A stretch of DNA of 64,000 bases, from positions 22,390,634-22,454,633 of the forward strand of contig OZ034970.1 of the NCBI GenBank assembly GCA_964030785.1, in the 5' to 3' direction. This document shows positions 7,270-62,540 of the stretch, piece by piece (the first letter of the stretch is position 1; every line of letters begins with the position of its first letter). The DNA is from Siderastrea siderea. Its lineage: Eukaryota; Cnidaria; Anthozoa; Scleractinia; Rhizangiidae. The notes under the pieces are model-generated. The model did no database searches, was not told the origin of the DNA, and saw nothing but the letters and a program-made list of their open reading frames with translations. The translations under genes were made by a program, and so were the position numbers.

Positions 7270-8207
7270 AAACAACAGAAGTGCGTTAAATAATCCAGAA
7301 TTTGTTGTCAAGGCTATTAATGAGCTTTTACTGAATAGATGCGTGATAGAAGTATTCTCAAGACCTTATTGTTGTAACCCTCTTTCTGTTGTCGTGGGGC
7401 GTAAGCTTCGCTTAGTCTTAGATCTCAGTAGATCTGTTAACCCTTTCGTTAAGAAGTTTAAGTTTAAACATGAAGGTCTCCCACTTTAGCGGTTATGTTT
7501 AGAGAGAATTTTTGGTTTTTCACATTTGACATAGAATCTGGTTATCATAATCTGGATGTTAACTATAAGTTTTGGAAATTTCTGGGGTTTTCATGGTCTT
7601 TCGATGGAGTGGAAAGATATTTTGTTTTCAGAGTTTTGCCTTTCGGATTGTCTTCAGATTGTTATATATTTACCAAGATGATAAGCCCTTCGTTGCTCGT
7701 TGTAGATAGCTCGGTATTTTCGCCATTGTGAATCTTTGCAAAGATAGAATCTTTGCTTGCAGAACTTTATCAAATGCACAACCCGCAAGCACATTTGTTA
7801 GGTTTGATCTCCAGCATTCTGATTGGAAGTGGAATGAAAAGAAATCCAACTGGGAGCCTCGCCAGTTGGGGGAGTGGTTAGGTATTATCATAGATACAAT
7901 TCGAATGCTCTTTGTCATTCCTGAGAAAAAGATTGTGAAGTTAAAGTCAGTTTTGACTGGGCTTATTCATGAATTTCCTAACCTTAGCGTTAGGGACGTA
8001 GCACGTGTTTCCAGATTTGTAATTTCTCTTACTGTTGCATTAGGGCCTGTCGCCAGGCTATTTACTAGACAAATGTATTTTTTCATTCAGTTGAGGAAGT
8101 CATGGGATGACGTGCTTGTCGCACCAGAAGGGGTTTTACGAGAGCTGAAATTTTGGTTAACTCATGTAGAAGCCTTTAATGGCTATCCAATTAATAGACC
8201 TTTGTAG
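7270..8207 (+). pseudogene. DIRS-like reverse transcriptase remnant lacking the catalytic YxDD
   Basis: Pieces include LRLVLDLSRSVN, FDIESGYHNLDV and FVFRVLPFGLSS (fingers and palm), then WEPRQLGEWLGIIIDT and SVRDVARVSRFVISLTVALGPVARLF (connection). Between PFGLSS and KSNWEP the expected aspartate pair is missing, and a stop and a frame change occur around 7728, so a deletion removed the active site. Confidence 0.7.
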
Positions 8208-8810
8208 TCTAGCGCAGTTTTAACCTGCGATGCCAGCCAGTCTGGCTATGGTGCTCACTTAACTTTTGGTAGCGATCGGAAATTTTGTTCCGGAATGTGG
8301 AGCTTGTTTGAGCGTGCAAAGAGTTCTTCCTTTCGCGAGTTAATGGCTATTTTCGTAGCCTTAAAAAGCTTTCAGAGCTTTATCATGGGTAAGAAGGTTA
8401 AGATTTTTTCAGACAACCAGAATGTCGTTCGTATTGTACACAATGGGAGCATTGTCGCACGTTTGCAGCAGATTGCTGTAGATATTTTTAGTTTTTGTTT
8501 GACTAACAGTGTGTCTTTTCAGATTCAGTGGATTCCCAGAGCTGTGAACGAGTTGGCCGACTATTTAAGTCGTATTGTCGACCCTGACGATTGGATGTTA
8601 AGTCCTGATTTGTTCAAGTTGATTGCGAATCTGTGGGGTCCTTTCGATGTGGGCAGGATGGTGTGTAGTTATAATTCTCATTTGCCCCGAATTAACTCTA
8701 AGTTTTGGTGTCCTGGCACTGAGGCAGTTGAGTGCTTCACTCAGGACTGGGGAAAAGACTATAACAATTTTGTTTGTCCGCCTCCTCACCTACCACATGG
8801 AAACTTTTAA
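8208..8810 (+). pseudogene. DIRS-like RNase H domain remnant
   Basis: The frame reads TCDASQSGYG, then FRELMAIFVAL, KIFSDNQNVVRIV and NELADYLSRI, so the four acidic RNase H residues are all recognisable. It is followed by the DPDDWMLSPDLF segment usual after RNase H in DIRS elements. It is open from about 8220 to 8810 apart from its link to the broken RT, which makes it the best-preserved part of this element. Confidence 0.7.
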
Positions 8811-23450: not shown

Positions 23451-23856
23451 GTAAGTCAAAAACAACTTAATGTATTAAACTGAAAAAAGGTAGCCAAATC
23501 ATTTGATGAGCCTTAAGAGCCGCAGTCTGTAACTTTCGAGAATCCGCGGTCAGGAAGCGAAAATTCGAATTTTCGTTTTCTACACCAAAAAGACCCTTTT
23601 GGTGAACCTTTTTAAAAATATTGATACCCAAAAGTTCCAGCGAGTCTTTATTTTGACAAAAACGGGCAAAGTTCGAAAAGCTGCCCAACCGCCGTCGAAG
23701 GCCGAGTTAAATTATGCAAATTAGCGTATTTTCAACTCGCCAGAACATGACAACAAAAGCTCGGACTAAATTCACTTTTTCGCCATTCGTTATTCATCCC
23801 TTGGACTTCCTTTTAAACTATATTTCATTGCCATGTTAACAATTTTTGTTTGCTAA

Positions 23857-24099
23857 TTACACGCTTAAAAAATGTAGCATTCGCTCTTCAGTTGATTCAT
23901 CGAATTTTACCTTATTACGGAAGATCACAGCACCGGGGGTATACGTATCTACAGGGCAAAAAGGGATTCTATCGAACGGGCAATTATTCTTCTTTATCAT
24001 ACTGAAATGGTTAGTTTGGCCCGCAAAAAGCAAGCGCGCTATAGGCAAAAACGTAGAGCCCATTTTCACACATTTCGCCGTTTTCTCTGTTGTTCTCAT
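23857..24099 (-). CDS. 80-residue conserved frame in the left arm of the inverted repeat
   Basis: The frame runs from MRTTEKTAKC to ...MLHFLSV and stop. The right-arm copy (27948-28184) keeps the frame with about ten changes, but its end is altered by a poly-T tract. There is no signal peptide, transmembrane segment or domain that I recognise. Shared frame could reflect recent duplication rather than selection, so coding status is uncertain. Confidence 0.25.
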   Translation of the reverse strand: MRTTEKTAKCVKMGSTFLPIARLLFAGQTNHFSMIKKNNCPFDRIPFCPVDTYTPGAVIFRNKVKFDESTEERMLHFLSV

Positions 24100-24781
24100 A
24101 TTACAAGCTGCATATCATTTTGAAACAAAAATCAATGATGTCGTTGGTCATTCTGATCAATGCTCCCAATTTTATTTGTTTTTAAATTTTAACACTTTAT
24201 ATCTGTAGCAATAACTTGACTTTTTTAATCAAACTAGATTATTTTCAAATACGGGAAAGTTAATTATAAGCACTAAATAAACAATCCTCTTACGTGTGCA
24301 CGGGGGAATTCGAACAAGAAGCTGTACAAACGTCGAAAAGAATTAGGTTTTTAATAGAAAACCGCCGAGTAGCTGCCACCTTTCCATCTTTCGCCAATCG
24401 ATATGCTTTTAGTTGACGTACCGATTATTAGACTTGCTTAGTTTAATAGGAACTTTGAACGACAAATATTACAACGTGTACCATGAGAGATAAATTCTAC
24501 TGCGTCACACCACACTACAGACAATCTGATATCACTAAAATTTTGATTTTGCGCCGTAAAATGTAACGCTTAAACATGCATAACAACACTCTCAACAACA
24601 TGTTTCTGCTGAGACTATGTTAATATAAATAGGTATAAAGGAAAATACATTATTTGTATAAGGCGCTTCTCTCTGTTCGCTCTGATTTCAATTATCCGAC
24701 TGGAGTCAAAGGCCACCTACGAAATCTTTTTTGTTCCCTATATAAGTATAGTTATTCACTTACTCGTCTTTTTGTGGTACA

Positions 24782-26800: not shown

Positions 26801-26916
26801 TTTCCTTTTTCATTCGTGGGTTTGACTGCCAAGAAGACGTATTTGTTTTGATTTTGTCCCACAAAAACAAAACAAATACGTCTTCTTGTCAGTCAAACCC
26901 ACGAATGAAAAAGGAA
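26801..26916. repeat. Strong hairpin: 49-50-bp arms, 17-bp loop
   Basis: TTTCCTTTTTCATTCGTGGG...GTATTTGTTTTG is mirrored almost perfectly after a 17-bp loop, with a single one-base length difference between the arms. It lies about 110-226 bp upstream of the start codon at 26690, in the presumed 5' region of the unknown Cys-rich gene. Confidence 0.75.
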
Positions 26917-28913
26917 AGTTTTTTTTTTTGCTCCTGCAACAAGCTGCCATCGCTAGTTCGCATCACTTGTTTTTGATTTTTATTCTCTTCATTTTTATTA
27001 TTGTTCTGGCTAAAAAAATCTTTCCTAGCGTATAAACCATTTTTGTGAAAAATGTTCAGCTACTCGGGTAAGAAAAAGGTCACTTTTCACGCAAATATTG
27101 ACATAGGATTTCCTGGCCATTTTCCCGCACAAGTATATCACGTTTCATTTGTCACGCAATGTGACGTCTTGTTGCCACGATTTAAATAGCATTTCTTGCA
27201 CATGTTCCATCTTTCCTTTGCGAGGAAACCAATGTCTTCAGCAACTTTAGCACAAACATCCAGCCTTAAAACAAGTAAGTCAGCTTTTTACGATTTTTAG
27301 TCGAACTAAGGCTACAGAATTACACGAAGACAAATTACGGGCGAACGATACTGTATGCAAATGTGTTTATAGAATAGGACGAGATAGCTATAGACCAAAT
27401 CATTTTCTCAGAAAGTGACTGGAAGCTTATAATCAGGACTGTGTGATTGAAGCTAAATTATCACTGCACACTTCGACGTGTAAGGGTGCAAATACATCTC
27501 GAATTTACGTGCACAATTCGTTTTCGCTGCTTTCGCGTTCGAATACAGTTTATTTATTTACCGACGGTTTTGCTGAAACCCTCCACAGCCAACAACACTG
27601 ATTTTCATTTCAAAATTCCTCGAACGGACAACGCCTGATTAAGACGTCAGCTTAAAATGTATAAAAAGTCGCTGAAATGGGAAATAAGCGAGTCAGCGAC
27701 GTTCAAACTATACCTTATAGAGCATTTTCAGCAAGGCGATCTTTTATGCCTCACACGCACGTGTAAGCAATTTGAATTGTTTATTCAGTACTTCACATTT
27801 TCTGTATTTGAAAATATAAATCTGGTTTCACTGAGAAACAAAGACAGGCTATTGCAACAATTGAAAATTGTTAAATTAAACAAATACAAATGGGATCGCT
27901 GACCAATACTGTTGTGCTTTGCTTCAAAACGAAGTGCCGCTTGTAAAATGAGAACAACAGAGAAAACGGCGAAATGTGTGAAAATGGGCTCTACGTTTTT
28001 GCCTCTAGCGTGCTTGCTTTTGACGGGCCAAACTAACCATTTCAGTATGATAAAGAAGAATAATTCTCCGTTCGATAGTATCCCTTTTTGGCCTCTAGAT
28101 ACGTATACCCCCAGCGCTGTGATCTTCCGAAATAAGGTAAAATTTGATGAATCAACTGAAGAGCGAACGTTTTTTTTTTTTTAAGCGTGTGGATAGCAAA
28201 CAAAAATTGTTAACATGGCAATAAAATATAGTTTAAAAGGAAGTCCAAGGGATGAATAACAAATGGCAAAAAAGTGAATTTAGTTTGAGCTTTTGTTGTC
28301 ATGTTCTGGCGAGTTGAAAATACGCTAATTTGCATAATTTACCTCGGCCTTCGACGGCGGTTGGGCAGCGTTTCGAACTTTGCCCGTTTTTGTCAAAATG
28401 AAGACTCGCTGGAACTTTTGGGTATCATTTTTTAAAAAGGTTCACCAAAAGGGTCTTTTTGGTGTAGAAAACGAAAATTCGAATTTTCGCTTCCTGACCG
28501 CGGATTCTCGAAAGTTACAGACTGTGGCTCTTAAATTCTTCCAGTTTGGAATAGAGGTTAAGCTATATTTAATTAACATAGGCAGAAATCATGTTTGCTT
28601 GTTTTTTTTTTGCAAGTAATGTTTCGGGGGTTATTTACAACCAAATGACAACTCTTCAATGCATTTTAATTTCTTAGAAACGCAGTGATAATGCTCATTT
28701 AGGTTTTACATTTGCACTTTCTTAGAACAATGCCTCTAAACTAGATCACCCTTATAATTTCCTGCTTTGCCACAAGTACACACGTACAAAAACCTTGTTT
28801 CCAACAAACCTTAATTTAAAACCAATAAAATAGTTAAACAATTTAAAATAAGTTTCCCTCTCTTTAGCTCAATGCGGCGGGGCTCTAGTTTCCGTGAAGC
28901 TTACACGAGGTAT

Positions 28914-31900
28914 TTAACACTTGTTACAGCTCTTCTTACACTGTTCTCGCATGAAATCCACATTCTTGTCGCACTCTCCAAGTTTTGCCCACAGTCCACA
29001 TTTAACGTGGTTGTCTCCACAGGCTTAAAAAGAAATAAAGCAAAAATCAAAACCATTCTTAAGCATTTATAAGCTGTTTCCAGAGCCCTGCGATAGCGAC
29101 AGCGGGTCATATATCTAAAAAGAAGGCGCGCTTTTCTCATAATTCAGCATTACCCTGGATGAGTCTTAAACTTATTACTATATAAGTAGCACGCGCATGC
29201 TCTGATTAGTTCACTACAGTTAGGCTAAAAGCTACTATTCTTGGATTGTCTACATTATAAATTCCTTTTAATTACTCTGTGAGTTCAAGTACAAAGAGAC
29301 TGACAGAAATAATTGTTAAACTTACCGTAAAAACTTTAGTTTGATTTTCCCTCTTCAAGTAGACTGAACGCCAAATTTTAAGGGAAGGTACGTTTTTCTT
29401 GAGGGGGGAGGGCTGGGGCCTCAGAGGGAAGGGTCATCAGTGAAAGTGAGCACCAAAAGGGGAGGGCCATACCTCATGTGAGCTATTCAAGGGAGGGTCA
29501 CACATCTTTTCCAGAATTTTTTAATGAAACTTTTTGTGATGTTGCTTTTCATTTTTCTTGTAGATTAAGATTTTCTTTTCACCTACTTTGATTTAATTTG
29601 GTGTTTTATTATAGGTACTAGGTTACATTTCTACATGTATATTATGCCATGGCACATAGTTTTTCTCGGAGGACTTGTGTCCTTTTCTCGGCCGTCCGTA
29701 TCGAGAAGTACTTGACTCAGGTATCGTTTCTTCAGCTTCTTGCTGTTGGCTATCCACTGCCTGATCTCCTGAGTCGTTTAGTTCTGTCGGAAATGTAGGA
29801 AATATTTGTTTTTGAGAGGCAGATTTCGCATGCTAAACAAATAAACCTTTCTGTTAAAATAACCAACAGCAATCCCGGCTATTCGGAGAAAGAAGCGCGT
29901 GTATTTTGCCTTAGCTATTTTATGTTCAAAACTTTTATAATACTCAAATGCTTCCATATTCAAACTTCAGCTATAAAATGTGAATATCCCACACTGATTG
30001 TTCGCATTTTCCTTGTTTCAGCGCGCACACGTTCAATATCGAGATATATTCATATTCAAACACTTTAAGTTCACAAGCGAAACGTTCTGAGGTTTCTACA
30101 GCATGGAACATACCATGTAGTAGTGAGGGGAGGGTCGCACTTTTGTCAGTCACCTAAAGGTGGGGGGTCAGGAGTTTTTTATTAAAACGCAAGGGAGGGC
30201 CAACACTTTTTTGGGAAAAAATACCAAAATTCCCCAGCCCTCCCCCCCAAGAAAAAACGTACCTTCCCTAACCATTTCCTCTCTACATAAGGTCCCTGCC
30301 CCCTACCCTTAGATGTTAGGCCAAGAGCAGGTGTTGACAATAAACGCGCCTCCACTCCAAAAAACATTTTTGTTTTTACACGCTGCCTGCGCGTTCATTA
30401 TATCCTAAGCACCAAGCATAAACAACTCACCACAAACATGGCAGCTTCTGACACAGTTGTCAAGCATCCAATCCTTGTTAGCAATACATTCTTCTTTCTG
30501 GGCCCATTCACGACATCTCCAATGCTTGTCTTCACAAACTGGAAAAAAAAATTGATTGAGTAAGCACTGACCGCCATTCGTGTTCCTTTGCACGTGTAAT
30601 CGTTACCCCCGGAGGACTCCCCAAACAGCGTTAGGAGGCTGGTCACCGAAGGAAAATTTGAGAGAGATCTCTAAAAGCTTCGTTTTTTCGAACTAACACC
30701 TTAGGACGTACAAGACCACGAATTGTAGGCACAAAGTTGTGGTTATGACACCGTCATTTTCATCGGGAATCCATGCTGGATTCGATATAGAAGCCCATAA
30801 TTACTCGAAAGACTCTTAGAATTCAAAACACATCCAGCAACTTAATGATAGCATCCAGCAAATTGATGATACAGTAATATATTGTTCCACTTTTGTATCA
30901 TTTTACTATACAAGGGTAAGAGAACGCGCAAAATATGCCAGCGTATTACACTGTACAATTCCGGTTTGACCGGATTTTTGTTTAAGGAGGACGAAGCTAA
31001 AACAAAATGCAGTGGAATAATAAACCTCTTATTCGGTTTTTTGGTCGACAATACGAGCGGACATTTTATTCATTGCTAGCATTGCAAATACTATGGAAAT
31101 CGTAAAATATCTGCGCATATTATCTACCTGTTTTCATTTGGTTAAACAGTCATCTAAAATACTTAGGGCTAAGCACGGATGTTACTAAAACGGGGATGGG
31201 GAATGGGGAATGGGGAATGGGGAATGGGGAATGAGAAATTGTGGTCAGCGGTAATACCTAAAAAATTACGTTGGAGTCTGCGCAGTACGGCGAAGAGACG
31301 AGGACTGCACGTGGTAAGCGAAAGATGGAAGGTAAGAATATTTACCTGCAGTTTTTCCCGAGTTTTCGGAATTACGGAGTTTCTCTTTATTAAAATTAAC
31401 CACAACTATTGATTTGCAGGCAGTGAGAGTGACGATGATGTTAAGGATCACGAGTTAATCGTTATCGACAGGTTGGTGTAAAAAGATTCGTATCACTTTG
31501 AGTACAGTCGCTTCGAGTGTTATTACTGAAAACTACGAGTAAATGTTCTCTCTATTTTGACGTTTTAGCGACGAAACAGTGGCAGAAGATGATTCTATGT
31601 TTGCAATTGCGAGAATGAATCTTTGTCTAAGGTATGAAAACGTAGAATGCGGCTTCGAAATTTCAACCGACAGCTGATGAATTATTAGAGCACTTGCTAT
31701 CGAATTTCGAATTGATTTTAATGGCGTTCATATTTGAGTTACAATCTAGGTTCATTTATGGTTTGCAGAAAGAACTGAGTGAAGTGACTAGAACATTGAG
31801 CTATTCTCCATGCTTCTTCTCTGGGGTATTTTCTTTTTAGTTGAAGAACAGCTTAACATTGCAGTCACATCACTCAGTTCTTTCTGCAAACCATAAATGA

Positions 31901-34224
31901 ATCTAGATTGTAACTCAAATATGAACGCCATTAAAATCAACTCAAAATTCGATGGCAAGTGCTCTAACAGTTAAGCAGCGGTCTGTTGAAATTTTCAAGC
32001 CGTATTCTACGTTTTAATACCATTGACAAAGATTCATTCTCGCCAGTTTAAAACTTAGAATCATCTTCTGTCACTGTTTCATCGCTATAACGTCAAAATA
32101 CACAGAACATTTACTCGTAGTTTTGATATTAACACTCGAAGCGACTGTACTCAAAGGGATACGAATCGTTTTACACCAACCTGTCGATAACGATTAACTC
32201 GTGATCCTAAACATTATCGTCATTCTCACTGCCTGCAAATCAATAGTTGTGGTTAATTTTAAAATGACAAACATAACAGCAAGGCTGATCTGACTACGTA
32301 GAAAGATTTGACTCTGCAATAATTCCAAAAACTCGGGAAAAACTGACAGATAAATATTCTTACCTTCCATCTTTCGCTTACCACGTGCAGTCCTCGTCTC
32401 TTTGCCGTACTGCACAGACTCCAGCATAATTTTTAGGTATTACCGCTGACCAAAATTTCTCATTCCCCATTCCCCATTCCCCATTCCCCGTTTTAGTAAC
32501 ATCCGGCTAAGCACTGATCAATTGTATTAAAACTTAAGTCGTCTCTACACACAATGATTGATTGATTGATTGATTGATTCATTGATAGTTTTATTGATTG
32601 ATTGATAATAATATTAATAATAATGAATTTATAGAGCGCTATTTCTATTGCTATCCAATAGCGCTCTACAATAATTTTAAAATGTCACCAATAAAATTGA
32701 TAAAAACGTAAAAATATCTGAAACATGAGAAAAATAAACTAACTAATAAAATAACTAAGCTGTAAAAATGAAAAAAACTAAGAATCATTAAAACCTTTAA
32801 ATGAAACTAACTAATTAACTAACTAATTGATTTAGCTGAAAGGCTATGTCAGCAAATCTTATGTTATTAAACATGTTTAAAATTTAACTTTATAATTTAA
32901 GAGTCAACAGATTTATTACCACACGTCCCACAGCTCAAAGCACATTGATGTGTCATAAAAGCTGGATTCTTCGAACACTCTCCCATCTTCATCCAAATAG
33001 GACACTGTTTCTCGTCACTATCCTTACACATAGCAGGCCGTCTGTTGTCTTAAAGGTGAACATCAATTAAGAAAACAAATATGTTACTAAAAAACGAACC
33101 TTGCAAAGGAGACGACCAGGGGAGTCAACAGTTTTTCTTCCATCTTTCCATGTTAAGGAAAACACGACATGATGGCTCACTTTGCGTTATCATACGTGAT
33201 GTAACGTCATGTTGGGCTATGTAATTATTTTATATTAAATTTGACCACAGAGTAAAATGACAGTTATCCTGGAAAAATGGGGGGCGGGGTGGGGGGGGGG
33301 GGGGGGGCTTAGCGTTATCGAATATTCATTTAAAAAGAAGTAATAAAGAACAAAGGAAAAACAAATTTTAATTTACACGTGTTCTTGATTGAAATCAGAA
33401 TTAAATTCTGTTTTAAATATTCAGCAATGAAGGAGAATATCTGTGCTGCACGCCCATCACTGACCTGATGAAGGAGTTACTGCACCCGTCGGTGGATCTG
33501 GCATGAGAAAAAAAAGAAGCATATAGTTTATTTAACTGTTGTTTCCTTAGAATGGTGCAAAAAAAGGTAATTTTGGTGGAAGCTGTGAAAAATTTTGTCC
33601 AGATAGATCCAGAGATGGTAAAAAAATGGTGAATCGAATTTTAACGTCATATTGTGGGGAGTAGTAGCCTTAAAATCTCCCGAGCCAGGGTCTCATGTGT
33701 AAGCCGCCTGACGTCCAGGTCGAAGTGAAATTTGGAAAATCAACACACATGGCACCCACTGGAACTGAAGGCAGGTCACAGAGGTGGGAGGCGAGTGCTC
33801 TCACCACTAAGCCAACTTGCTCCCAAGAAAGTGCATTGAATATGATGTAATGGAATGAAGTTTGATGCATTGGGGCACAATGTAATGTAATGTAATGTAA
33901 TGTAATGTAATGTAATGTAATGTAATGTAATGCAAGCTAGGGTAGCGTATATATCATGAACACTGAGGATGTGATCGGGCGTCAACTTCCAGTCAGCTTT
34001 GGTCGGCACTGGATGCCGCTATCATTCCGTCTATGATTTATCCACCCACTCTACCCTTGAAATGTGAGAGAAAGGATCGGATCAGATCGGATCAAATCCG
34101 GTGAAGATCGAATAAGTAAGTGGATGACGTGAGATCACATGGCTGAGGAAGGGCGGCGCAGAAGAAAAAGAGGAAGAATAAGTAGTAGTAGTAGTAGTAG
34201 TAGAAGAAGAAGAAGAAGAAGAAG

Positions 34225-37600: not shown

Positions 37601-40600
37601 AACAGAACTGTCACATAAATCTGGCACGATTAACAAAAAGGCAATTTCAGTTCAAAACAGTTGGTCTTGTCACTAATTGCGGGTTTTCTTCTTATGTTAC
37701 ATGCAAAACAATTTACAGTACAACTTGGCTGCGTTTTGGCTTAAGTTACAGGTAACAGCCAGAAATTGCATTTCGTTCTTAACAACTGCCAATCGCTGCA
37801 ATGATGGAGTGAAAAGGTTAACAGAAACATCAACAAAAAGGTTATAAAGCCATTTTATACATTACAACATTGTTTCTTGAAACAAAACGAAACAATGGCT
37901 AAACAAGCAACTGAGAGCTCGGGACCACAGCAGAGTTCAGTTACACTACATACTTTGGCAATCGTACAAAGCATTAAGTTCAGCAATATCAAGAGGACTC
38001 AGTGTTTTTCCCGGCGTTCCAAAGTTCTCGCTTGGGTTGTCAATCCGCACAATGGTATCCATTCCATTCTTTGTGAAAGCTTTCCTGTCGTAGTGCATAA
38101 TGGACTGGAAATCGTAATCTTTTCCAACCCTGTCAATTGTCTTGTAGGTGTACTTGTCAAACTGATCAGAAAACTCTGTCAAGCAAGTAAAAGTGTGAGG
38201 TATTGTAATTATTTTTCAGTGCCAAAAGTTTAACTGTACTCAAATTGAGACTAAAAATCAATGTAACAAAAAAAAAACAATGTAGCTAAAGTTAATCAAA
38301 AGTTTGAAGCAATCCCTTTAAAGTTGCATCCCAGACTGAAATCGATTATGTGAAATAAATGAGGCCCAGATGAGGTCTACATGAGTTATATTCCATTTCA
38401 GATCAACCTTCTCTCACCCAACCAAAATAAACAGATCAGACGCACCACTGTGTATTGTTCTGGCCCCAGTTGTTCAAAAGTTGGATAGCGCTATCCACCG
38501 GATAAATCTCTATCCAGTGGATAACGCAATCGGTTTCCCTAACACTTATCCACTGGATAGTAATTTATCCGGTGGATAGCGCTATCCAACTTTTGAACAA
38601 CTGGCCCTGGACAACAGGTCCACCACAATATTATACATCCTCTCTGAGACCCCTGAGGTGGGGGAGGGAGAGGGCTGAGGCTCTTTTCGTACCCAGTCCC
38701 ATAGCAGTTACTTCAGTTCCAGTGACAGAAACCTCAAAACCCCATACTCGTACCCAGTTCCCATGCATTTGATTTTATGGTGAAAGCGGATCGGATACAC
38801 GTTAAATGCAAGCGACTGGAAAGAAGAATGTTTGATTTCCAAATAAGGGACAATTGTGGCCACCCAACACCACCTCCTTACACACAAACACCTTGTTTTC
38901 CTTCTAGATTTTCAGTTAAACCAGAAATTCCATCTCTTCCTTCCCCCCCCCCCCCCACTCCCATCGTCATATATTGAGTATAATATATATGATATATATG
39001 GTTATAAGATAATGTAATATAATTATATTATATAATTAACAATTATTCGCCTCAGACTTAGTAAATATTCGCCAATTATTACTGAGCCTGAGGCAAACAA
39101 TTGTTTTTGTATAATTTTGAGATGTGGACATCAAAAAGTAAACAAACAAACAAACAAAAAACAGCTAAAACATGACAAACAACACACGAGAAAAAGTAAC
39201 AGCTTAGCAGGCGCGCCTTGAAATGTAATATTCACCGGAAAGTACGCTGAATATTGCGTTAAAAAATATATATATACTCATATATAATATATATGGTTAT
39301 CAGATGAGGAAATACTCTGTTTAATAAGTTGAGAGGGTAAAATGGTAATACAACTCAAGTCTAGTCGTAATCAAGATAAGGTAATTCACCGTCCATAATG
39401 TTTTCCCACTTAATTTGCACAAATTGGTCTCGATCTTCTCTAGCTTGCTCGTGGAAAAACCCTGCAATTGATGAATTAGGGGTTAAAACATCAATGCAAA
39501 AAGAGAAAGAGAGCAAAGAAGCAAATCGTCGAAAGTATCTTGTCAAAAAGACGAAAAAACCCTGTTATACTGTTATAAAAAGATGAGGGTGTCTTGAATG
39601 AAAATAGTGTGCACCTACCCAAGGCATGTAGAAGCTCATGTGTAATAGTACCCACAAAATTGCATCCGTCTCCTATCGAGATTGTCTGACGACCAGCCTC
39701 AGCGTACTTCTTTCCCACCCTGGAGGAACACCTGAAAGAAAAAATAAGGCGATTCGGTGATCAGCTGAAATCCCAAATGTTTAAAACAGCATCTTCGTAG
39801 AAAAGACACGACGGCTGTTGCAACAGCTAGGCAGAACATGTGATCAACAAAACGAAATAACGAGTGAAAAACATCCTACGTCTAATCAGTTATATGACCT
39901 GAAACGAAAAAGTGTAAAATACTATACAACAGTCATGTAAGTTTCCAATATTGTACAATATCCAAGAAGCACGTAGCTAGTATGCATGAATTTTACTTCC
40001 AGTAGGAGAAGCAATAGAGTTTGACCAAAAAAATGGACAACCGATGGGGGCAACATGTCTGCAACTTGTAAAACAGGCGATGTTAAATTTGAGGGATTAC
40101 TTTGGAGGCGGAAAACGTGCGATAGAAGACATTAATAGGTGCGGAGATGCAACAGCAGGCATGGATGTAGCGTGACATCCACACAACTGCCGCATAAGAA
40201 ACTTGGAACGAGGAGACGGCATCCTACAGAGAAATCAATAACACAAGAAACCGCTCCGGTACACGAAGAATAGGAAACCTTGTAGTACATGTAGTTTAAG
40301 CGGCTTTAACATACCCGTCGCGATTATCAAATTCGATGTAATTCCTATGTCCATTGTACGGAACAAAACGCAGACATGTATGCCGGTGGATGTTCTCAAT
40401 TGCTTTCATTAGGTTTCCTCTTATGTGGGCTAGATTAAGAAGGAGAGTTCTTATTAAATGGATGAATAGTCTGTGTTTAATTAAATATCTTGCGCTGAAT
40501 TTTGTCTCGAGGTTGGAAGCACAGGCATATGTCAACCGTTTTTCAGTAACAAAAAATGAAAAGAGATTAAAATGCAGCCAACAGTTGAGTTACATGTATT

Positions 40601-46600: not shown

Positions 46601-49600
46601 ATGTACTGCTACTTTCCTAAATAAACGGATCAGACAATAAAAAATACATTTCGGTAGCTTGGTCCACTTTGGCCTCGTTAGCACCTAAAATCCCACATAA
46701 AATCCTGGTTACGGGCCTGCGGTTGACCTTTTTACCGTCCGATGAAAAGTACAAAAAGGTAGCCAATGCATCATCGCCACGCCTAAAAAAACGGTTAAAT
46801 GTGTGTTACGAGTTTCGTTAAAGGAGTGGTTCGTTTGTAGACGGAACGCAGGGTTGTCGGTAACAGCAACAAGCAGATTTATTCCAGGATGAAAGTAATC
46901 TTTTCAGCTTACAGCACTACTGCAATGTCACACAGACTCTTCTAACACGGCACACAGCTCAGCACACAGCCACTTCACTAGGTTCGACACACAGCACGGC
47001 ACACAGCCACTTCACTAGGTTCGGCACACAGCACGGCACACAGCCACTTCTCAAAACTCTTTTAAAACTCCTTAAACTCTCTCTCTAAACTCTCTCAGTA
47101 GACTGGAACGCTCTTACTTATATACATATCACAACAAGTTCTAGAAACTTCTACGAAATCTATTTTTAGTAACATTACATTATAACTTACTATCTAAAGA
47201 AATCATATAATCATTTAAATGACTAAGCACTTTATAATGTTCTAGAGAGTTCTATGGAATGTTCCGGAGGGTTCTGAGTAATACTAGACAATTTTCGTAA
47301 CATAACCCCCTCTCAAGAAGAAATTTGCAAAATTTCTGCTAACAACGAAAAATTGTCTAAAAATATTAGTCCGAGGATAAGTCTAATGGTTGCTCTTACT
47401 CTGATCCCTTAATGGTCTCCACTAACTTCTGATGCATCGTCTTAATCTGGAGCAGCATCCTTGGGTAATTTAAGCTGCGCCTCTGCACTCCTTTTACTTG
47501 TGTCAGTCTCCTGAGAGTGACTCGGGTCGTCTGCTGCTCTAGCACCTGGCACATTACCAATGACAAGATCATAGATCGCATGGGGAAGACATTGTGCTTC
47601 AACAATACCAGTGAGATAAGGAGTATCCACATAAATCCTCGCAACTGGAACTTTCCTCACTGTACCGTCGATTAGTACCATATGGTTATTTTCACCAGTG
47701 TACTGATCCTCGGCGACAAGCTCCTTCTTAACAACAATACCACTGCAACCAGTGTCTCTGAGAACATTAACGCTTGTATTTCCCACTTTGCCTTTTACCA
47801 CTGGCATCCAAGCTTCCGCTAACGGCTGAACACACACACTACTCACCACGGGGACTGATTTTCCACAGGCTAACATTAACTGGTTATCTTGAATACACGA
47901 CTCCAACTCTTCTTTTGTAGCTCGTACCAGGGGCGATTGAACTAAACAGCCAGCACTGATGTGATTACGGGGCGCAGGGTTACTAATCTTGGTCTGACCT
48001 CCTGGTCTCTGTCCTATAGATTTACAGTTACGCGCCTCATGACCTTGCTTATTACACAGATAACATTTCCTTACTCCATTCAGGCAGTTGAAAGACTTAT
48101 GGCCTCGGCCATTACACTTAAAGCATCTCACCGTTGAACTATCACTCAGTGTTCTCTCAGGCTCAACATCATCTGTCTCCTCAGGTGCCTCGTTCTTCAC
48201 AGGGTTGAACAGATGCTTACCATGTGCTTCTAAATACTGGTCGGCTATCTTAGCAATCTGATCCAGGTTTTCAGGTGCCCTCTCACGTAAATGAACAGCA
48301 AGTTCCTTGGGACATGAGTTGATGAACTGTTCTTTGACAATCAAATCCCTCAAGCCTTCAAAACTCTCAGTAGTTTTAGAAAGTCCAATCCACCTCATAA
48401 GATACTTAGTCAAACGGACAATAAACTGGTCAGGGCTCTCATCAGACTCAGGTTTTGACAATCTAAACTTACGGCGGTATCCATCCTCCGTTAAATCATA
48501 CCTCTTCATTAGGGCCAACTTCACTTGATCATAATCCACGGCAGCTTCTTCTGATAAACGGGAATAAACATCCAGCGCCCGGCCAGACAACAAGGCACTC
48601 AACTTGGTAGCCCAACCAGTCTTTTCCCACTTGGCATTGGTTGCAAACCTCTCAAAGCGTTGAAGATATGCTTCCAGATCATCCCTGCCGTCAACAAATG
48701 AGGGTAGTTTAGGGGTCTTGGCCTGATCCTCTCTATTAGGTACTCGATCAGTAAGGTTATGCTCCTGTCCTAAACGTGCAAGCTCCAACTCATGTTCTCT
48801 CTTAGCAGCCTCCATGGCCTCTTTCTGTTTCAAAAGTTCAGCCTCCATTTCTAATTTTCTTAGTTCACGCTCTTGTCTTCTGGCTTCTCTCTCCTCATCC
48901 TCTCTTCTACGCCTTTCCTCCTTCTCTTCTTCTTCTTTTCTTCTCTCTTCCTCAAGTTGTCTACGTTTCTCTACTCTCTCTTCCTGCTCTCTTCTTCTCT
49001 CTTCTTCTCTTTCTTCTGCTTCTTTCCTTCTTTTGTGCTCTTCTCTTCTTCTCTCTTCTTCTAGTTTCTGTTGATTTTCCACAAATGCGAGCAGCTTTGC
49101 CCCCTCTAGTCCCATTTCTTTTCCTAACTGTACTAGTTTCTCCATGATGCTTCACAGTACAATCTCAGTAAACACACAGTCAGCACTTCTTTCACGTGTT
49201 TCGTAAACCACACTCAACGGCTTGTACTGATCCTTTCCTGGTTACTATTGTCCACAAAACGATTCTTTTACTCCTCTCAGGACAGGCCCCCAATGTTACG
49301 AGTTTCGTTAAAGGAGTGGTTCGTTTGTAGACGGAACGCAGGGTTGTCGGTAACAGCAACAAGCAGATTTATTCCAGGATGAAAGTAATCTTTTCAGCTT
49401 ACAGCACTACTGCAATGTCACACAGACTCTTCTAACACGGCACACAGCTCAGCACACAGCCACTTCACTAGGTTCGACACACAGCACGGCACACAGCCAC
49501 TTCACTAGGTTCGGCACACAGCACGGCACACAGCCACTTCTCAAAACTCTTTTAAAACTCCTTAAACTCTCTCTCTAAACTCTCTCAGTAGACTGGAACG

Positions 49601-51610
49601 CTCTTACTTATATACATATCACAACAAGTTCTAGAAACTTCTACGAAATCTATTTTTAGTAACATTACATTATAACTTACTATCTAAAGAAATCATATAA
49701 TCATTTAAATGACTAAGCACTTTATAATGTTCTAGAGAGTTCTATGGAATGTTCCGGAGGGTTCTGAGTAATACTAGACAATTTTCGTAACAATGTGCCT
49801 GCGCGCTTGCAACGCTAGCGACCTACCTTTTGTCCCTGTCGCGCTAGTGACAAACGTTTCTGTTTTTTTTGGGGGGGGAGGGGGTTGGACTGGACACGCT
49901 ACCCAATAGCCAGGTTCTCGTGAGTTTTTTTTTTTCGATCGATCTTTCTCTCACCTCTCACCCCTTCCCCCACCATCATCATTGGATATGGCAAGATAGA
50001 CCACGATACTGGTGCTAAATTATTTGACAACTACTTTTGTTGTCATTGTTGTCTTCAATCCCTGTTTTTCGAACCCACGTCAAATCAATGGAACATGCAG
50101 TAGAGGCCCGGATGAAAGTTTCGATTGCACCTGTCGGGTGGGATATTTGCCGCCTCTTTGTAGAGGTAAGTAATGGCAGTACTATCCGTCTAAAACCCTG
50201 AAACAGGCGAGGAATGAATTAAAAGTGAGTGCGAAAAGCAAAAAAAAAAAAAGATCCACACTCTCCAGAGACCAGCTCTAATTGATATCAACTCCGGTTG
50301 GTGGTTTGAAGGCCAAACTCTGGGAAACTAAGATTTTTAGTTGGTTATATATTACAACAAATAAAACTCTGACCAAGTGTCACGGCTAAACGATATTTCT
50401 AGTGTTTTGAGCCACTTAAATCTTGTGGCTCTATTAAATACATTTGAGGTCTCCGCCCGTGACCTTTTGTGTACCAAAAAGCCTCATACGTCGTTGAGTC
50501 CAAATTGACTGCATATTTTTGAGTTACAAAAGCAGCTAACCATAACAAAGACCGTTTTAAAATGCCATATTCTTACAAATTTTCGCCCGTACTTAACTTC
50601 GCGAGGAATTGCGAAAATTAATACTTGCGAAAAAAGAGTGCGCGAAAAGTAAACACGCGAAATTTAGTACCATCAAGAGAAAATGAGGGGACAGAGAGGG
50701 ACACTGCCAGCCCAGGCTTTGGGATATGTCAAGTTCGGTAAAGTTATTTTTAGACGGCCATTTGAAGCGGAAGTCCGTTTTCTGGACGTCCGCATAAAGG
50801 CAACCTCGATCTGGCGTTTGAAGAACCATTCAAAATTTTGCTTGTAATGGCGGACCAAGTGGTGTTACGTTTTGTCGATGAAAACGACTTCGAAAAACAA
50901 GGGAAATGGTATTTATGCGGACGTTTCAGGAAACAGGCTTCCGTTGAAAAGCCAGTCTATAAATAACTTTTGTGGAATTGACATATCCCAGCCAACGCCC
51001 TCAGAGTCCCTCTCTGTCCCCTTATTTTCTCTTGGTACCATATTATAAAAGAAAACAATAGATGAATTTTTAGATGTTGTGAGTCACGGGCTTGTTGGTA
51101 ATCGTTCTTTGTTAAAACTCTTTCTTGTTTGGACTAGCACTCTTCCTCCGACATACAGTTTTCAATTACCCTCAGAGTGTACAGTTAGTTTGTGAAAATT
51201 CTCTTTCTGTGAACCAGGGTTTGGGAGACTAAAGCAATGGCAAAAGCGTGAAATTAAATTAAAAACGCTCGTGTAAACTTTTTTCCTGGAATCGCGAAAA
51301 TTGAGTACCCGCGAAATACAGCTAACGAATTTTCGCAAAAGTAAATAAGAGCGAAAATTAGTAAGAATAAGGTACTGAACTTTAGAACCTGTATTCCAAG
51401 AGCTCTTTGAAGAGCTCTCCTCAAATATTTCCGGGATAAGTAAGCAATTCTTTTCATATTTTGTGATAAGCACAAACCATGTCTTGATTGTACAGTTAAT
51501 CAGAACATACCTGTGTGTGGCTCCTCGATTTCGTGTACGGCGTTTACCGGCCTTGCCAAGCAGTCAGTCAGGAGGACGACCAAGAGAACCACAGAGTTCC
51601 TTAAATACAT
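28914..51610 (-). CDS. Secreted multidomain astacin metalloprotease (astacin-TSP1x2-MAM-ShKTx5), 19 coding exons
   Basis: Zinc endopeptidase predicted to be secreted and active outside the cell. I rebuild it from GT/AG borders as complement of 51511-51610, 42871-42933, 41681-41833, 41257-41442, 40315-40429, 39619-39731, 39390-39461, 37954-38175, 37250-37423, 36522-36701, 35988-36119, 35455-35720, 34885-34966, 34523-34630, 34302-34412, 33465-33497, 32920-33048, 30431-30538 and 28914-29023. The phases agree throughout and sum to 2457 nt, 818 residues plus TAA. Order: signal peptide 1-24, propeptide 25-152, astacin about 153-341, TSP1 342-399 and 400-459, MAM 460-619, ShKT 620-655 and 656-692, Pro/Thr/Ser linker 693-703, then three ShKT to 818. 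Zinc ligands are H237, H241, H247 and Y296. Cnidarian astacins with ShKT tails serve in development and in venom; which applies here is not shown. Least certain are exon 1 (8.6-kb intron), exon 5's acceptor and the mini-exon at 33465. Confidence 0.88.
29382..30268. mobile_element. 887-bp Harbinger-like MITE in the last astacin intron
   Basis: The ends GGGAAGGTACGTTTTTCTTG and its complement are flanked by TAA on both sides, a 3-bp target duplication as made by PIF/Harbinger elements. Inverted similarity continues through a G-rich stretch (GAGGGCTGGGG). No transposase frame was seen. Confidence 0.65.
31177..32504. mobile_element. 1.33-kb foldback element with 10-bp target duplication, carrying an exon-like module
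   Basis: The ends GGATGTTACTAAAACGGGGA and its complement are flanked by GGCTAAGCAC on both sides. The arms (about 31177-31790 and 31862-32504) are inverted copies; the loop is about 70 bp. Just inside each end is a GGGGAAT tandem tract. The long target duplication and long arms fit a Mutator-like or foldback family. The arms contain spliced-looking coding segments. It lies in the intron between the third and fourth ShKT exons of the astacin gene. Confidence 0.75.
31271..31631 (+). pseudogene. Three-exon module inside the foldback element (left arm)
   Basis: Segments 31271-31331, 31420-31471 and 31569-31631 are bounded by gtaaga, tttgcag, gttggt, ttttag and gtatga, and join in one frame: LESAQYGEETRTARGKRKMEG, SESDDDVKDHELIVIDS, DETVAEDDSMFAIARMNLCLR. 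The protein is acidic, with a basic KRKM patch, and is not recognised. The inverted copy (32427 leftward, minus) has an ATG where this one has ACG, but stops in the second exon. Neither arm is a complete gene. Confidence 0.4.
33274..33307 (+). repeat. G-rich tract in astacin intron
   Basis: A run of about 30 almost uninterrupted G on the plus strand (C on the transcribed gene's sense strand), between exon 17 and the 33-bp mini-exon. Confidence 0.8.
33881..33932 (+). repeat. (TGTAA)n pentanucleotide microsatellite
   Basis: About ten perfect units in an intron of the astacin gene. Confidence 0.9.
34181..34262 (+). repeat. Compound trinucleotide microsatellite (AGT)n(AGA)n(ACA)n
   Basis: Three adjoining trinucleotide tracts lie 40 bp downstream, in gene direction, of the exon encoding the second ShKT domain (exon 15). 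Long poly-Leu, poly-Phe/Tyr and poly-Arg/Thr frames over it are artefacts of the repeat. Confidence 0.9.
34640..34693 (+). repeat. (AAAT)n tetranucleotide microsatellite
   Basis: About 13 units in the intron directly before ShKT exon 14, which starts only about 10 bp away. It lies within or beside the polypyrimidine and branch-point region of that intron. Confidence 0.9.
34885..36119 (-). CDS. Astacin gene exons 11-13: MAM domain
   Basis: Three exons encode about 160 residues. They begin with TDFERGMGMW, equivalent to the DFE...CGW start of MAM domains, have GPSADHTTGTG at the exon 11/12 border, and end with the typical SDIAIDDVYIDAELC strand. MAM domains mediate adhesion and dimerisation in meprins, which are also astacins, so the combination has precedent. 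The junction between exons 12 and 13 is phase 0, the only internal exception in the TSP1-to-ShKT part of the gene; it lies inside the domain rather than at its edge. Confidence 0.85.
36522..37423 (-). CDS. Astacin gene exons 9-10: two thrombospondin type-1 repeats
   Basis: Each exon encodes one TSP1 module and has phase-1 borders. Exon 9 has WTQWSRFTPC, two further closely spaced Cys and a C-terminal CGSHECPG. Exon 10 has WGRWSAWTKCDAQC followed by RSRIRVC and ends CTTRRCNLG. The WxxW tryptophans are of the kind that are C-mannosylated in this family. TSP1 modules commonly bind matrix glycosaminoglycans, so these probably place the protease on extracellular matrix (inference). Confidence 0.88.
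37954..40429 (-). CDS. Astacin gene exons 5-8: catalytic zinc-protease core
   Basis: Residues 168-341. Exon 5 carries HTCLRFVPY, exon 6 the zinc helix HELLHALG, exon 7 FFHEQAREDRD, and exon 8 the Met-turn SIMHY with the tyrosine ligand. The four cysteines of the family (C186, C207, C229, C340) are present, so both astacin disulfides can form, and every catalytic residue is intact. For exon 5 I chose the acceptor after ctccttcttaatctag: it restores phase and gives 24 residues between IPY and the first Cys, as in crayfish astacin. An acceptor nearer AGGAAAC would create a stop or a shorter loop. Confidence 0.88.
38465..38604. mobile_element. 140-bp MITE in astacin intron 7
   Basis: CCAGTTGTTCAAAAGTTGGA and its complement form the ends, with nested GGATAGCGCTATCC palindromes, so the whole element folds on itself. 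Confidence 0.75.
39033..39112. repeat. Small foldback repeat
   Basis: AACAATTATTCGCCTCAG is mirrored by CTGAGGCAAACAATTGTT with TATTCGCC/GGCAAAC differences. It lies next to ATATAT-rich sequence in an astacin intron. Confidence 0.45.
41257..42933 (-). CDS. Astacin gene exons 2-4: propeptide and activation site
   Basis: These three phase-1 exons encode residues 34-167. Exon 3 is rich in Gln and Lys and probably helical. Exon 4 has FFFDQGDM (residues 109-116), resembling the FxGD aspartate switch by which astacin propeptides block the active zinc. It then has a basic RSRKR stretch ending at residue 152, directly before LW, where the mature astacin domain normally starts, so a furin-type protease could activate it. 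Two cysteines (C120, C132) in the propeptide are unusual. The mature N-terminus ends in TIPYRI, the first conserved strand. Confidence 0.82.
44036..44607 (-). mobile_element. Insertion ending in a hammerhead-bearing repeat, Penelope- or retrozyme-like
   Basis: Absent from the equivalent place in the duplicate at about 1706. Its right end reads CCGTAAAGAGATTGAAAG followed by CTGACGTTTCGAGCG, a repeat end I associate with Penelope-like elements in many animals. The body has no recognisable reverse transcriptase or GIY-YIG sequence, so it is a short relic. Confidence 0.45.
44563..44607 (-). ncRNA. Hammerhead ribozyme-like motif (minimal type I)
   Basis: On the minus strand: a GCT stem I strand, the core CTGACGA, a stem II GGGC-TGAC-GCTC, GAAA, then ACGTC with cleavage predicted after GTC, and AGC closing stem I; outer AUU/AAU pairs extend stem I. 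Stem III has no loop (palindromic ACGT), and one extra A follows CTGACGA. That is the minimal form that works better as a dimer in Penelope-like elements and newt satellite. Activity is not shown. Confidence 0.4.
44737..46719 (+). mobile_element. Non-autonomous hAT transposon, 1983 bp
   Basis: The terminal inverted repeats CAGGCCCGTAACCAGG and its complement are flanked by CGGTT. The 5-bp target duplication is confirmed by the uninterrupted duplicate at about 1834. It carries broken pieces of transposase and is far shorter than an autonomous hAT, so it is an internally deleted copy. Confidence 0.75.
45191..46476 (+). pseudogene. hAT transposase remnants (ZMYM1/TTF-type-like)
   Basis: An N-terminal piece, 45191-45499 (MGRREQENRKRKASAKSLQS), a middle piece, 45657-45974, and a C-terminal piece ending at 46476 with ERLSSLALMHIHDQV, then VNLFATKHPQRLELGTIL. 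The last is the hAT dimerisation motif. The catalytic centre between them has been deleted. Confidence 0.6.
46804..47302 (-). repeat. 3' LTR of the gag-protease element
   Basis: Same 499 bp as the other LTR. The polypurine tract GAGAGGGGG followed by TTA abuts it on the minus strand. The ATGTG target copy is at 46799-46803. Confidence 0.9.
47442..49145 (-). CDS. Gag-protease polyprotein of the LTR retrotransposon (567 aa, intact)
   Basis: Residues about 20-130 form a highly charged Glu/Arg-rich coiled coil. About 155-315 is a gag capsid-like, SCAN-like helical region (LEAYLQRFERFA, ALLSGRALDVYSRLS, LKRY-like KRYDLTEDGYRRKF, QFINSCPKELAVHLRE). Two CCHC knuckles follow (CFKCNGRGHKSFNC and CYLCNKQGHEARNC). 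The last part has an aspartic protease active site in a VLRDTGCSGIVV context. The frame is open with no damage and stops at 47442; the polymerase part is simply missing. The start Met is the first in frame after the LTR leader. It is the product of a transposable element rather than a host gene, probably Ty3/gypsy-like. Confidence 0.85.
   Translation of the reverse strand: MEKLVQLGKEMGLEGAKLLAFVENQQKLEEERRREEHKRRKEAEEREEERRREQEERVEKRRQLEEERRKEEEEKEERRRREDEEREARRQERELRKLEMEAELLKQKEAMEAAKREHELELARLGQEHNLTDRVPNREDQAKTPKLPSFVDGRDDLEAYLQRFERFATNAKWEKTGWATKLSALLSGRALDVYSRLSEEAAVDYDQVKLALMKRYDLTEDGYRRKFRLSKPESDESPDQFIVRLTKYLMRWIGLSKTTESFEGLRDLIVKEQFINSCPKELAVHLRERAPENLDQIAKIADQYLEAHGKHLFNPVKNEAPEETDDVEPERTLSDSSTVRCFKCNGRGHKSFNCLNGVRKCYLCNKQGHEARNCKSIGQRPGGQTKISNPAPRNHISAGCLVQSPLVRATKEELESCIQDNQLMLACGKSVPVVSSVCVQPLAEAWMPVVKGKVGNTSVNVLRDTGCSGIVVKKELVAEDQYTGENNHMVLIDGTVRKVPVARIYVDTPYLTGIVEAQCLPHAIYDLVIGNVPGARAADDPSHSQETDTSKRSAEAQLKLPKDAAPD
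49294..49792 (-). repeat. 5' LTR of the gag-protease element
   Basis: TG...CA ends. It carries several internal copies of a cggcacacagccacttcact-type 30-bp unit, plus a TATA-like tatatac stretch. No difference from the other LTR was found on reading through both. Confidence 0.9.
50003..50165 (+). pseudogene. EGF-like exon, second copy, start codon lost (ATG to ACG)
   Basis: The six-cysteine EGF-like frame and the gtaagt donor at 50166 are kept, but the start codon of the other copy is ACG here. It lies in intron 1 of the astacin gene, on the opposite strand. It may be dead, or may be used as an internal exon if an upstream acceptor exists; I see no AG-bearing polypyrimidine tract directly before NPC. 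Confidence 0.4.
50674..51034. mobile_element. 361-bp MITE with 33-bp inverted ends
   Basis: CAAGAGAAAATGAGGGGACA at the left is mirrored at the right with one to two mismatches. GTACCAT flanks both sides, and the duplicate at about 2777 has a single copy of it (gtaccgt). The 7-bp target duplication does not settle the family. Confidence 0.75.
51511..51610 (-). CDS. Astacin gene exon 1: signal peptide and start codon
   Basis: The minus strand encodes a 33-residue start beginning MYLRNSV, with a Leu/Val-rich core and a likely signal cleavage after about residue 24 (PVNA). It ends in phase 1 before the donor gtatgt, which fits the phase-1 exon at 42933. The same exon, also 100 bp, occurs at 3242-3341, which supports its being real coding sequence. 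The 8.6-kb intron after it is filled with mobile elements, so a missed small exon is possible, though the phase joins cleanly. Confidence 0.7.
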
Positions 51611-62050: not shown

Positions 62051-62540
62051 TGTGCAGTTACGATCGGTTGTTGACAACCAAATCAATCATTCCCACACAC
62101 GGGAAAAGCGGTCAGAAACGTGGTTGTCGACAACCAAGCAGTTTCTATTTTCGAAAAGGAAAACTGCCTAGTTGCCGACAACTAAACATTTAGCTTATAG
62201 TTGTCGACAACTTGTCTCAAGCGGCCTTCACACGTCAAACTAATGTTGGCCAACTCGTGTTGACAAACTCAAATTGGTGTTGTTGTGACACAACAACATG
62301 TTGGCAAACTGTTGGCGACAAAAGGAACTTGTCTCTATTCTCGCCAACTTTTCGCCAACAGTTTGCCAACGTGCTGTGGTGTCGTTCACACACACCAACT
62401 TGAGTTTGCCAACACGAGTTGGCCAAGATTAGTTTGACGTGTGAAGGCCGCTTCACACGCAACGTGTTTTAGTTGTCGATGACAATTAGCTGTCGATAAC
62501 AAATAGTTGTCGACAACTAAATGTTTAGTCTGTGGCGGCC
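62050..62540. mobile_element. Repeat built on GTTGTCGACAAC-type motifs, interrupted by a MITE
   Basis: Palindromic variants of AGTTGTCGACAACT recur at about 62064, 62121, 62175, 62200, 62470, 62490 and 62508, and a related run is at 60885-60975. The arrangement on both sides of the nested MITE looks inverted. Presumably one MITE was split by another. Confidence 0.5.
62221..62451. mobile_element. 231-bp MITE with about 58-bp inverted ends
   Basis: GCGGCCTTCACACGTCAAAC at the left is mirrored at the right end (GTTTGACGTGTGAAGGCCGC). Inverted similarity extends inward through GTTGGCCAACTCGTGTTG. It sits inside the GTTGTCGACAAC repeat, so it is the younger insertion. Confidence 0.8.

What the first reader, a model, noticed from the sequence alone, without database searches (positions are those of the whole stretch)
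31177..32504. Foldback element carrying an inverted pair of a three-exon module
Perfect 20-bp ends, a 10-bp target duplication, 0.6-kb arms, and in each arm three short segments with correct splice borders that join in one frame (TARGKRKMEG, SESDDDVKDHEL, DETVAEDDSMF). One arm has the ATG, the other the open frame. It may be an exon-capturing or gene-derived foldback; I know of no description of this module.
Basis: partly seen in the sequence, partly recalled or inferred. Interest (0 to 1): 0.75.

Follow-up and report, generated by a model that had tools for sequence, protein, structure and literature searches.

The report
Hairpin transposon carrying inverted gene start
This is a small non-coding jumping gene of the foldback kind whose two mirror-image arms each seem to hold a decayed copy of the first exons of some gene, most likely the front end of a larger parent transposon; it is a neat variant of known elements rather than a new kind.

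Summary
31177-32504 is a palindrome with 20-bp identical ends, a 10-bp target duplication GGCTAAGCAC, 7-bp tandem repeats behind each tip, 0.63-0.66-kb arms and a 31-nt loop. Each arm has GT/AG-bordered segments reading inward. Details need correction. (i) The right-arm 'ATG' is not conserved; a better start is in both arms (31325, context AAAGATGG). (ii) The left arm lacks one base in exon 3 that the right arm and two outside copies have; with it, exon 3 joins in frame to a fourth segment that runs to the palindrome centre. Such a three-intron chain is in 0 of 3000 shuffles and 0 of 3068 other stretches, but the base was added after the fact. Seven predicted proteins from other contigs are unspliced reads of the same arm, three with clearly different flanks: a dispersed family. 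Arms diverge equally in exons and introns, with stops: no sign of coding now. Best reading: a non-autonomous Mutator-like foldback made by inverted duplication of one end (tip, leader, first exons) of a larger element. No donor was found; the genome search did not complete, so self-derived versus captured host exons stays open.

The parts
31167..31176 (.). left target site duplication GGCTAAGCAC
32505..32514 (.). right target site duplication GGCTAAGCAC
31177..31191 (+). left terminal tip GGATGTTACTAAAAC
   Evidence: the 17-mer ATGTTACTAAAACGGGG has only these two matches in the window with up to 3 mismatches, 0.12 expected
32490..32504 (-). right terminal tip, reverse complement
31192..31233 (+). 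six copies of the 7-bp repeat GGGGAAT, left
32461..32489 (-). about four copies of the 7-bp repeat, right
31177..31810 (+). left arm (634 bp)
31842..32504 (-). right arm (663 bp; 43 nt longer in intron 1)
31811..31841 (.). loop, also read through by P0001
31325..31331 (+). coding start of exon 1: ATGGAAG, context AAAGATGG
   Evidence: chosen as best start by the chain search; same ATG in the right arm at 32370
31332..31419 (+). intron 1 (left arm), phase 1
31420..31471 (+). exon 2, SESDDDVKDHELIVID
31472..31568 (+). intron 2, phase 2; weak donor and acceptor
   Evidence: scores 2.49 and 0.93
31569..31631 (+). exon 3, DETVAEDDSMF, then frame-shifted in this arm
   Evidence: right arm, P0001 and P0007 carry one base more
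31632..31768 (+). intron 3, phase 0 in the longer copies
   Evidence: GTATGA...TTTGCAG
31769..31810 (+). fourth segment KELSEVTRTL..., cut by the palindrome centre

Best explanation
A non-autonomous foldback element with the ends and target duplication of Mutator-like transposons, moved in trans by a transposase that is not in it. It arose when one end of a larger parent element (tip, 7-bp repeats, 5' untranslated leader and the first three to four exons of a gene reading inward) was copied in inverted orientation in place of the other end, perhaps at a short inverted repeat that is now the stem by the loop; the palindrome then spread as a unit. Shown: palindrome, target duplication, inward module in both arms, several copies at different places, no sign of coding constraint between the arms. 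Inferred: that the module is the front of the parent transposon's own gene, how the palindrome formed, mobilisation in trans. Any effect now would come from the DNA hairpin or a double-stranded transcript, not from a protein.
For: Anatomy. Module unlikely by chance (with the limits given there). Both modules read inward and their start lies about 90 bp behind the last terminal repeat, as expected of a gene driven from a transposon end. Left-arm introns are short, 88, 97 and 137 nt. Seven predicted proteins on contigs of seven different lengths align to the arm (P0001-P0007); P0002, P0004 and P0006 have clearly different residues upstream of the tip (P0005 differs too, but shows only two or three), so at least three insertion sites. 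P0001 runs from exon 3 through the loop and about 20 nt beyond. Exon versus intron mismatches between arms 15 of 178 versus 23 of 302, Fisher P 0.73; 2 silent and 2 stops among 12 changed codons. Precedents: Galileo copies that lengthen their TIRs by inverted recruitment of the region between TIR and transposase (PMC3573991, passages); Mu killer, with two TIRA ends and inverted partial mudrA (PMC3440606, passages); mosquito MULEs with long TIRs, 8-10-bp TSDs and subterminal tandem repeats, one called a type 2 Foldback (PMC5225508, passages and section 6).
Against: No parent element or transposase was found. The spliced peptide has no significant Pfam match in the first version or the corrected one (best E 0.093, below the cut-off) and no match in solved structures. 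The seven proteins are unspliced open frames chosen by the query and say little about splicing. Splice dinucleotides are kept in 15 of 17 cases in the copies against 1499 of 1971 (76%) adjacent base pairs overall, no clear excess. P0001 could be a single-armed copy, since it ends about 20 nt past the loop.
Confidence: 0.6

Rival explanations
1. Captured host exons: a Pack-MULE-like foldback that picked up the 5' exons of a cellular gene and duplicated them with its arm.
For: Animal transposons with captured sequence exist, including Ssk-FB4 in fly (PMC8277862, abstract and passages); non-autonomous mosquito MULEs carry host gene fragments (PMC5225508 section 6); a 15-kb insertion with MULEs at both ends was called suggestive of a pack-MULE in Nematostella (PMC9842752, passage). 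The peptide is acidic, with ELIVIDSDE resembling a SUMO-binding motif (recalled), which could belong to any nuclear protein.
Against: The module starts right behind the terminal repeats and reads inward in both arms, and introns are short. No host homologue was seen, but the searches were nearly blind to spliced proteins and used the uncorrected peptide. The survey of 100 animal reference genomes reports no Pack-MULE.
Confidence: 0.22
2. The 'exons' are chance: an ordinary long-armed foldback whose arms happen to contain splice-like borders and short open stretches.
For: A two-intron chain as good turns up in 4 of 3000 shuffles and once elsewhere in the window; the three-intron score needed a base added after the fact; 64 kb were searched by eye. 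Copies do not keep frames; other, unspliced frames are open in some copies, e.g. P0001. Splice dinucleotides are not clearly more conserved.
Against: The three-intron chain, using a base that three other arm copies have, is in 0 of 3000 shuffles and 0 of 3068 stretches; the chain search picks by itself an ATG with a good context that both arms share.
Confidence: 0.15
3. Two separate elements or solo ends inserted head to head rather than one palindromic element.
For: Arms differ at 48 aligned sites and by 43 nt in intron 1.
Against: One target duplication encloses the pair, and P0001 shares the loop and the first ~20 nt beyond it.
Confidence: 0.03

Closest known systems
Mutator-like foldback elements (Muta1/Muta5 of Aedes aegypti; Tm1 of Meloidogyne; Drosophila FB4, its kinship recalled)
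   Same: 8-10-bp target duplications, long terminal repeats with short tandem repeats behind a short tip, non-autonomous derivatives
   Different: here the arms also hold a leader and three to four exon-like segments, and only a 31-nt loop lies between them; no transposase was seen, so kinship rests on anatomy
Galileo 'extended TIR' copies (P superfamily, Drosophila)
   Same: internal sequence next to the terminal repeat duplicated in inverted orientation, giving longer arms
   Different: 7-bp target duplications and a P-type transposase; in the passages read the recruited stretch lies between TIR and transposase, not spliced exons
Mu killer (maize)
   Same: two copies of the same element end with the first part of its gene in inverted orientation
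   Different: Mu killer is one locus that silences MuDR; here a dispersed, decayed family and no silencing evidence
Pack-MULEs / Pack-TIRs
   Same: exon and intron fragments inside transposon ends
   Different: no host donor known here, and the fragments sit in both arms

Membership tests
Mutator-like (MULE) superfamily | 8-11-bp target site duplication (PMC6446971, passage) | tested here: met
   10 bp
Mutator-like (MULE) superfamily | long terminal inverted repeats | tested here: met
   634- and 663-bp arms
Mutator-like (MULE) superfamily | MULE DDE transposase in the element or in a partner with the same ends | tested here: inconclusive
   the element has no room for one; the search for a partner did not complete in 15 of 15 tries
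Foldback structural class | long inverted arms with subterminal tandem repeats and little or no middle | tested here: met
Pack-MULE / Pack-TIR | captured fragment traceable to a cellular gene | tested here: inconclusive
   no significant Pfam or solved-structure match; host genome not searchable
Mu killer-like silencer | inverted duplication of the 5' end of an active partner's gene | tested here: inconclusive
   inverted module shown; partner not found
Mu killer-like silencer | hairpin transcript and small RNAs | not testable with these tools
   folding predicts one long hairpin, -942 kcal/mol, which any palindrome would; no RNA data

The most novel reading that the evidence does not exclude
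A mobile, Mu-killer-like family: copies dispersed in an animal genome each carry the promoter-proximal end and first exons of their own parent transposon as a hairpin, so that any read-through transcript makes double-stranded RNA against the parent gene, and the element spreads the silencing of its own mover.
Probability: 0.1. Interest if true: 0.7.

Novelty: new variant of a known kind. Interest (0 to 1): 0.35.

Why it matters
If the module is the front of the parent's gene, these copies give the tips, leader and first exons by which the autonomous partner can be found, and a natural series of hairpins to test whether foldbacks silence their movers in an animal. In Nematostella, injected double-stranded RNA gives siRNAs and moderate knock-down (PMC12768352, abstract), so the route is plausible in a cnidarian, if this is one.

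Tried and rejected
Rejected: the right-arm ATG as the start (right arm and P0004 only; Ser at that codon, in the other frame, in P0002, P0003, P0005 and P0006). Rejected: the TAG acceptor ending at 31749 for intron 3 (score -3.05 against 2.96 for TTTGCAG); it keeps the left arm open only because that arm lacks a base. It was still used in the peptides.

Led nowhere: the tip pattern in viral contigs (0) and genome contigs (1 match, L001, inside a Bacteroidetes gene with no other similarity); related loci in viral contigs (11 pattern matches, none confirmed); Rfam and tRNA scans of the window (none); Pfam on the spliced peptide and solved structures.

Literature: ten searches of an open-licence library. 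(the latter with tip and repeat letters) gave 0 papers. I saw listings and abstract starts only, and parts of the lists (12 of 16, 10 of 499, 12 of 14, 15 of 1,975, none of those 15 with a foldback term). In these I saw no description of this element; that is weak evidence of absence.

Not done: a structure prediction of the short acidic peptide, which would say little.

Full report
What is there. The window holds a 1,328-bp palindrome at 31177-32504. Its ends are identical over 20 bp, it is enclosed by the 10-mer GGCTAAGCAC (31167-31176, 32505-32514), and behind each tip lies an array of the 7-bp unit GGGGAAT, six copies left and about four right. The arms pair over nearly their whole length, 87-97% in the five main ungapped blocks, leaving a 31-nt loop. 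No other part of the window matches the element at E 0.01. Mismatch between the arms rises from 0 in tip and repeats to about 13% near the centre, and the right arm is 43 nt longer in intron 1.

The module. In the left arm three segments with GT...AG borders join in one frame. First, the start: the right-arm ATG at 32427-32425 is ACG in the left arm; of five outside copies that cover it, four have Ser in the other frame, which excludes ATG, and P0004 (Cys) is compatible. A different ATG, in the same frame and in the context AAAGATGG, is in both arms (31325 and 32370). Of six outside copies that cover it, P0007 begins there, P0003, P0005 and P0006 are compatible, and P0002 (Gln) and P0004 (Ser at the Trp codon) have lost it (one search scores single bases and so lists P0004 as compatible, but Ser cannot give TG). 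Second, one base: the right arm, P0001 and P0007 have one base more in exon 3 than the left arm. With it, exon 3 reads DETVAEDDSMFxTGENESLSK. Third, a fourth segment: in that frame exon 3 joins at phase 0, through the acceptor TTTGCAG ending at 31768, to KELSEVTRTL..., which runs to the palindrome centre. So the module looks like the front of a gene with at least four exons, cut by the centre.

Chance. On the left arm as it stands the best two-intron chain is this module (score 13.5); 4 of 3000 dinucleotide shuffles reach it (largest 17.6), and 5 of 3068 overlapping stretches of the rest of the window, all at one place. With one base added and a neighbouring one changed, the best three-intron chain is again this module (19.8); 0 of 3000 shuffles (largest 12.7) and 0 of 3068 stretches reach it (first run of 150 and 146, none reaching the two-intron score). 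The controls were made from unaltered sequence, so this favours the module somewhat. The second donor and second acceptor are weak.

Other copies. The third protein search gave seven proteins among 40 candidates, the weakest at E 3.3e-8; its query was built from the arm, and all seven align to it. They are predicted open frames through the unspliced arm, mostly in another frame than the module. P0002, P0004 and P0006 have clearly different residues upstream of the tip; P0005 shows only two or three; P0003 starts at the tip. Contig lengths (longest contig of each) are 700, 2,195, 10,637, 517,059, 548,891, 681,998 and 2,997,463; organisms are not named, so copies may come from more than one species. 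P0001 covers exon 3 to the loop and about 20 nt past it, but its first ~99 residues have no clear match in the window: in that copy something else joins within intron 2. Of 48 substitutions between the arms, other copies side with the left arm at 18, with the right at 10, and do not decide at 20, so both arms have their own changes, the right more.

No sign of coding now. Between arms, exons differ at 15 of 178 and introns at 23 of 302 sites (P 0.73; intron 3 counted to 31749, the fourth segment left out); of 12 changed codons 2 are silent and 2 are stops, both in the right arm. That count starts at 31269, so its first three codons lie upstream of the start that I prefer, and its last two lie in or behind the frame-shift. 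Splice dinucleotides in the copies are kept in 15 of 17 cases against 76% for all adjacent pairs, no clear sign of constraint.

How it most likely works. The tips, repeats, long arms and 10-bp duplication are those of Mutator-like foldbacks, e.g. the mosquito families with 8-10-bp duplications, long TIRs and subterminal tandem repeats (PMC5225508, passages and section 6) and Tm1 (PMC3169594, abstract and passages). The simplest source of the module is the parent: its place right behind the repeats and its inward direction fit a gene driven from the transposon end. Inverted duplication of the region next to one end is known from Galileo (PMC3573991, passages), and one that includes the first exons from Mu killer (PMC3440606, passages). 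The palindrome would then move in trans. I hold this at 0.6. Capture of host exons (0.22) is the main rival, because neither parent nor donor could be looked for: the genome search did not answer in 15 of 15 tries, and the corrected peptide could be tried only against Pfam (best E 0.093, below cut-off) and solved structures (none). The transposon class rests on anatomy only; no transposase was seen.

Where it comes from. Pfam finds TSP_1, MAM and rhodopsin-type receptor domains in the window, so it is animal DNA. A cnidarian, perhaps a coral or anemone, is my guess from recalled resemblance, not a result.

Verdict. Real, probably gene-derived, and ordinary in kind: a foldback with an unusual arm. 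Interest 0.35; it would rise if the parent were found and shown to be silenced by these hairpins.

Noticed in passing
46804-49792: LTR element with 499-bp LTRs that are 100% identical and one 569-aa minus-strand ORF (SCAN and zinc-knuckle matches above cut-off; gag and aspartic protease matches below it); no other minus-strand ORF of 100 aa or more lies in it: a very young gag-only element. 5-bp target duplication ATGTG; a related repeat near 1906-1960 shows the unfilled site.
   Followed up: partly
50674-51034: Small inverted-repeat element with CAAGAG ends and an apparent 7-bp target duplication GTACCAT; a related repeat near 2770-2785 has the empty site with one base different.
   Followed up: partly
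23513-24129 and 27918-28534: Inverted pair of about 0.62-kb arms, 93.5% identical, 3.8 kb apart; no target duplication evident by eye in the printed flanks.
   Followed up: partly
8208-8810: RNase H-like fragment of a retroelement (PF17917, E 1.4e-10); the open frame before it (7710-8207) gave no convincing Pfam match.
   Followed up: no
38466-38604, 26801-26917, 62214-62458: Short palindromes with 93-97% complementary arms, possibly MITEs.
   Followed up: no
31506-31530 region as seen in P0001 (residues 1-99): In the copy behind P0001 unrelated sequence joins the arm inside intron 2; origin unknown.
   Followed up: no
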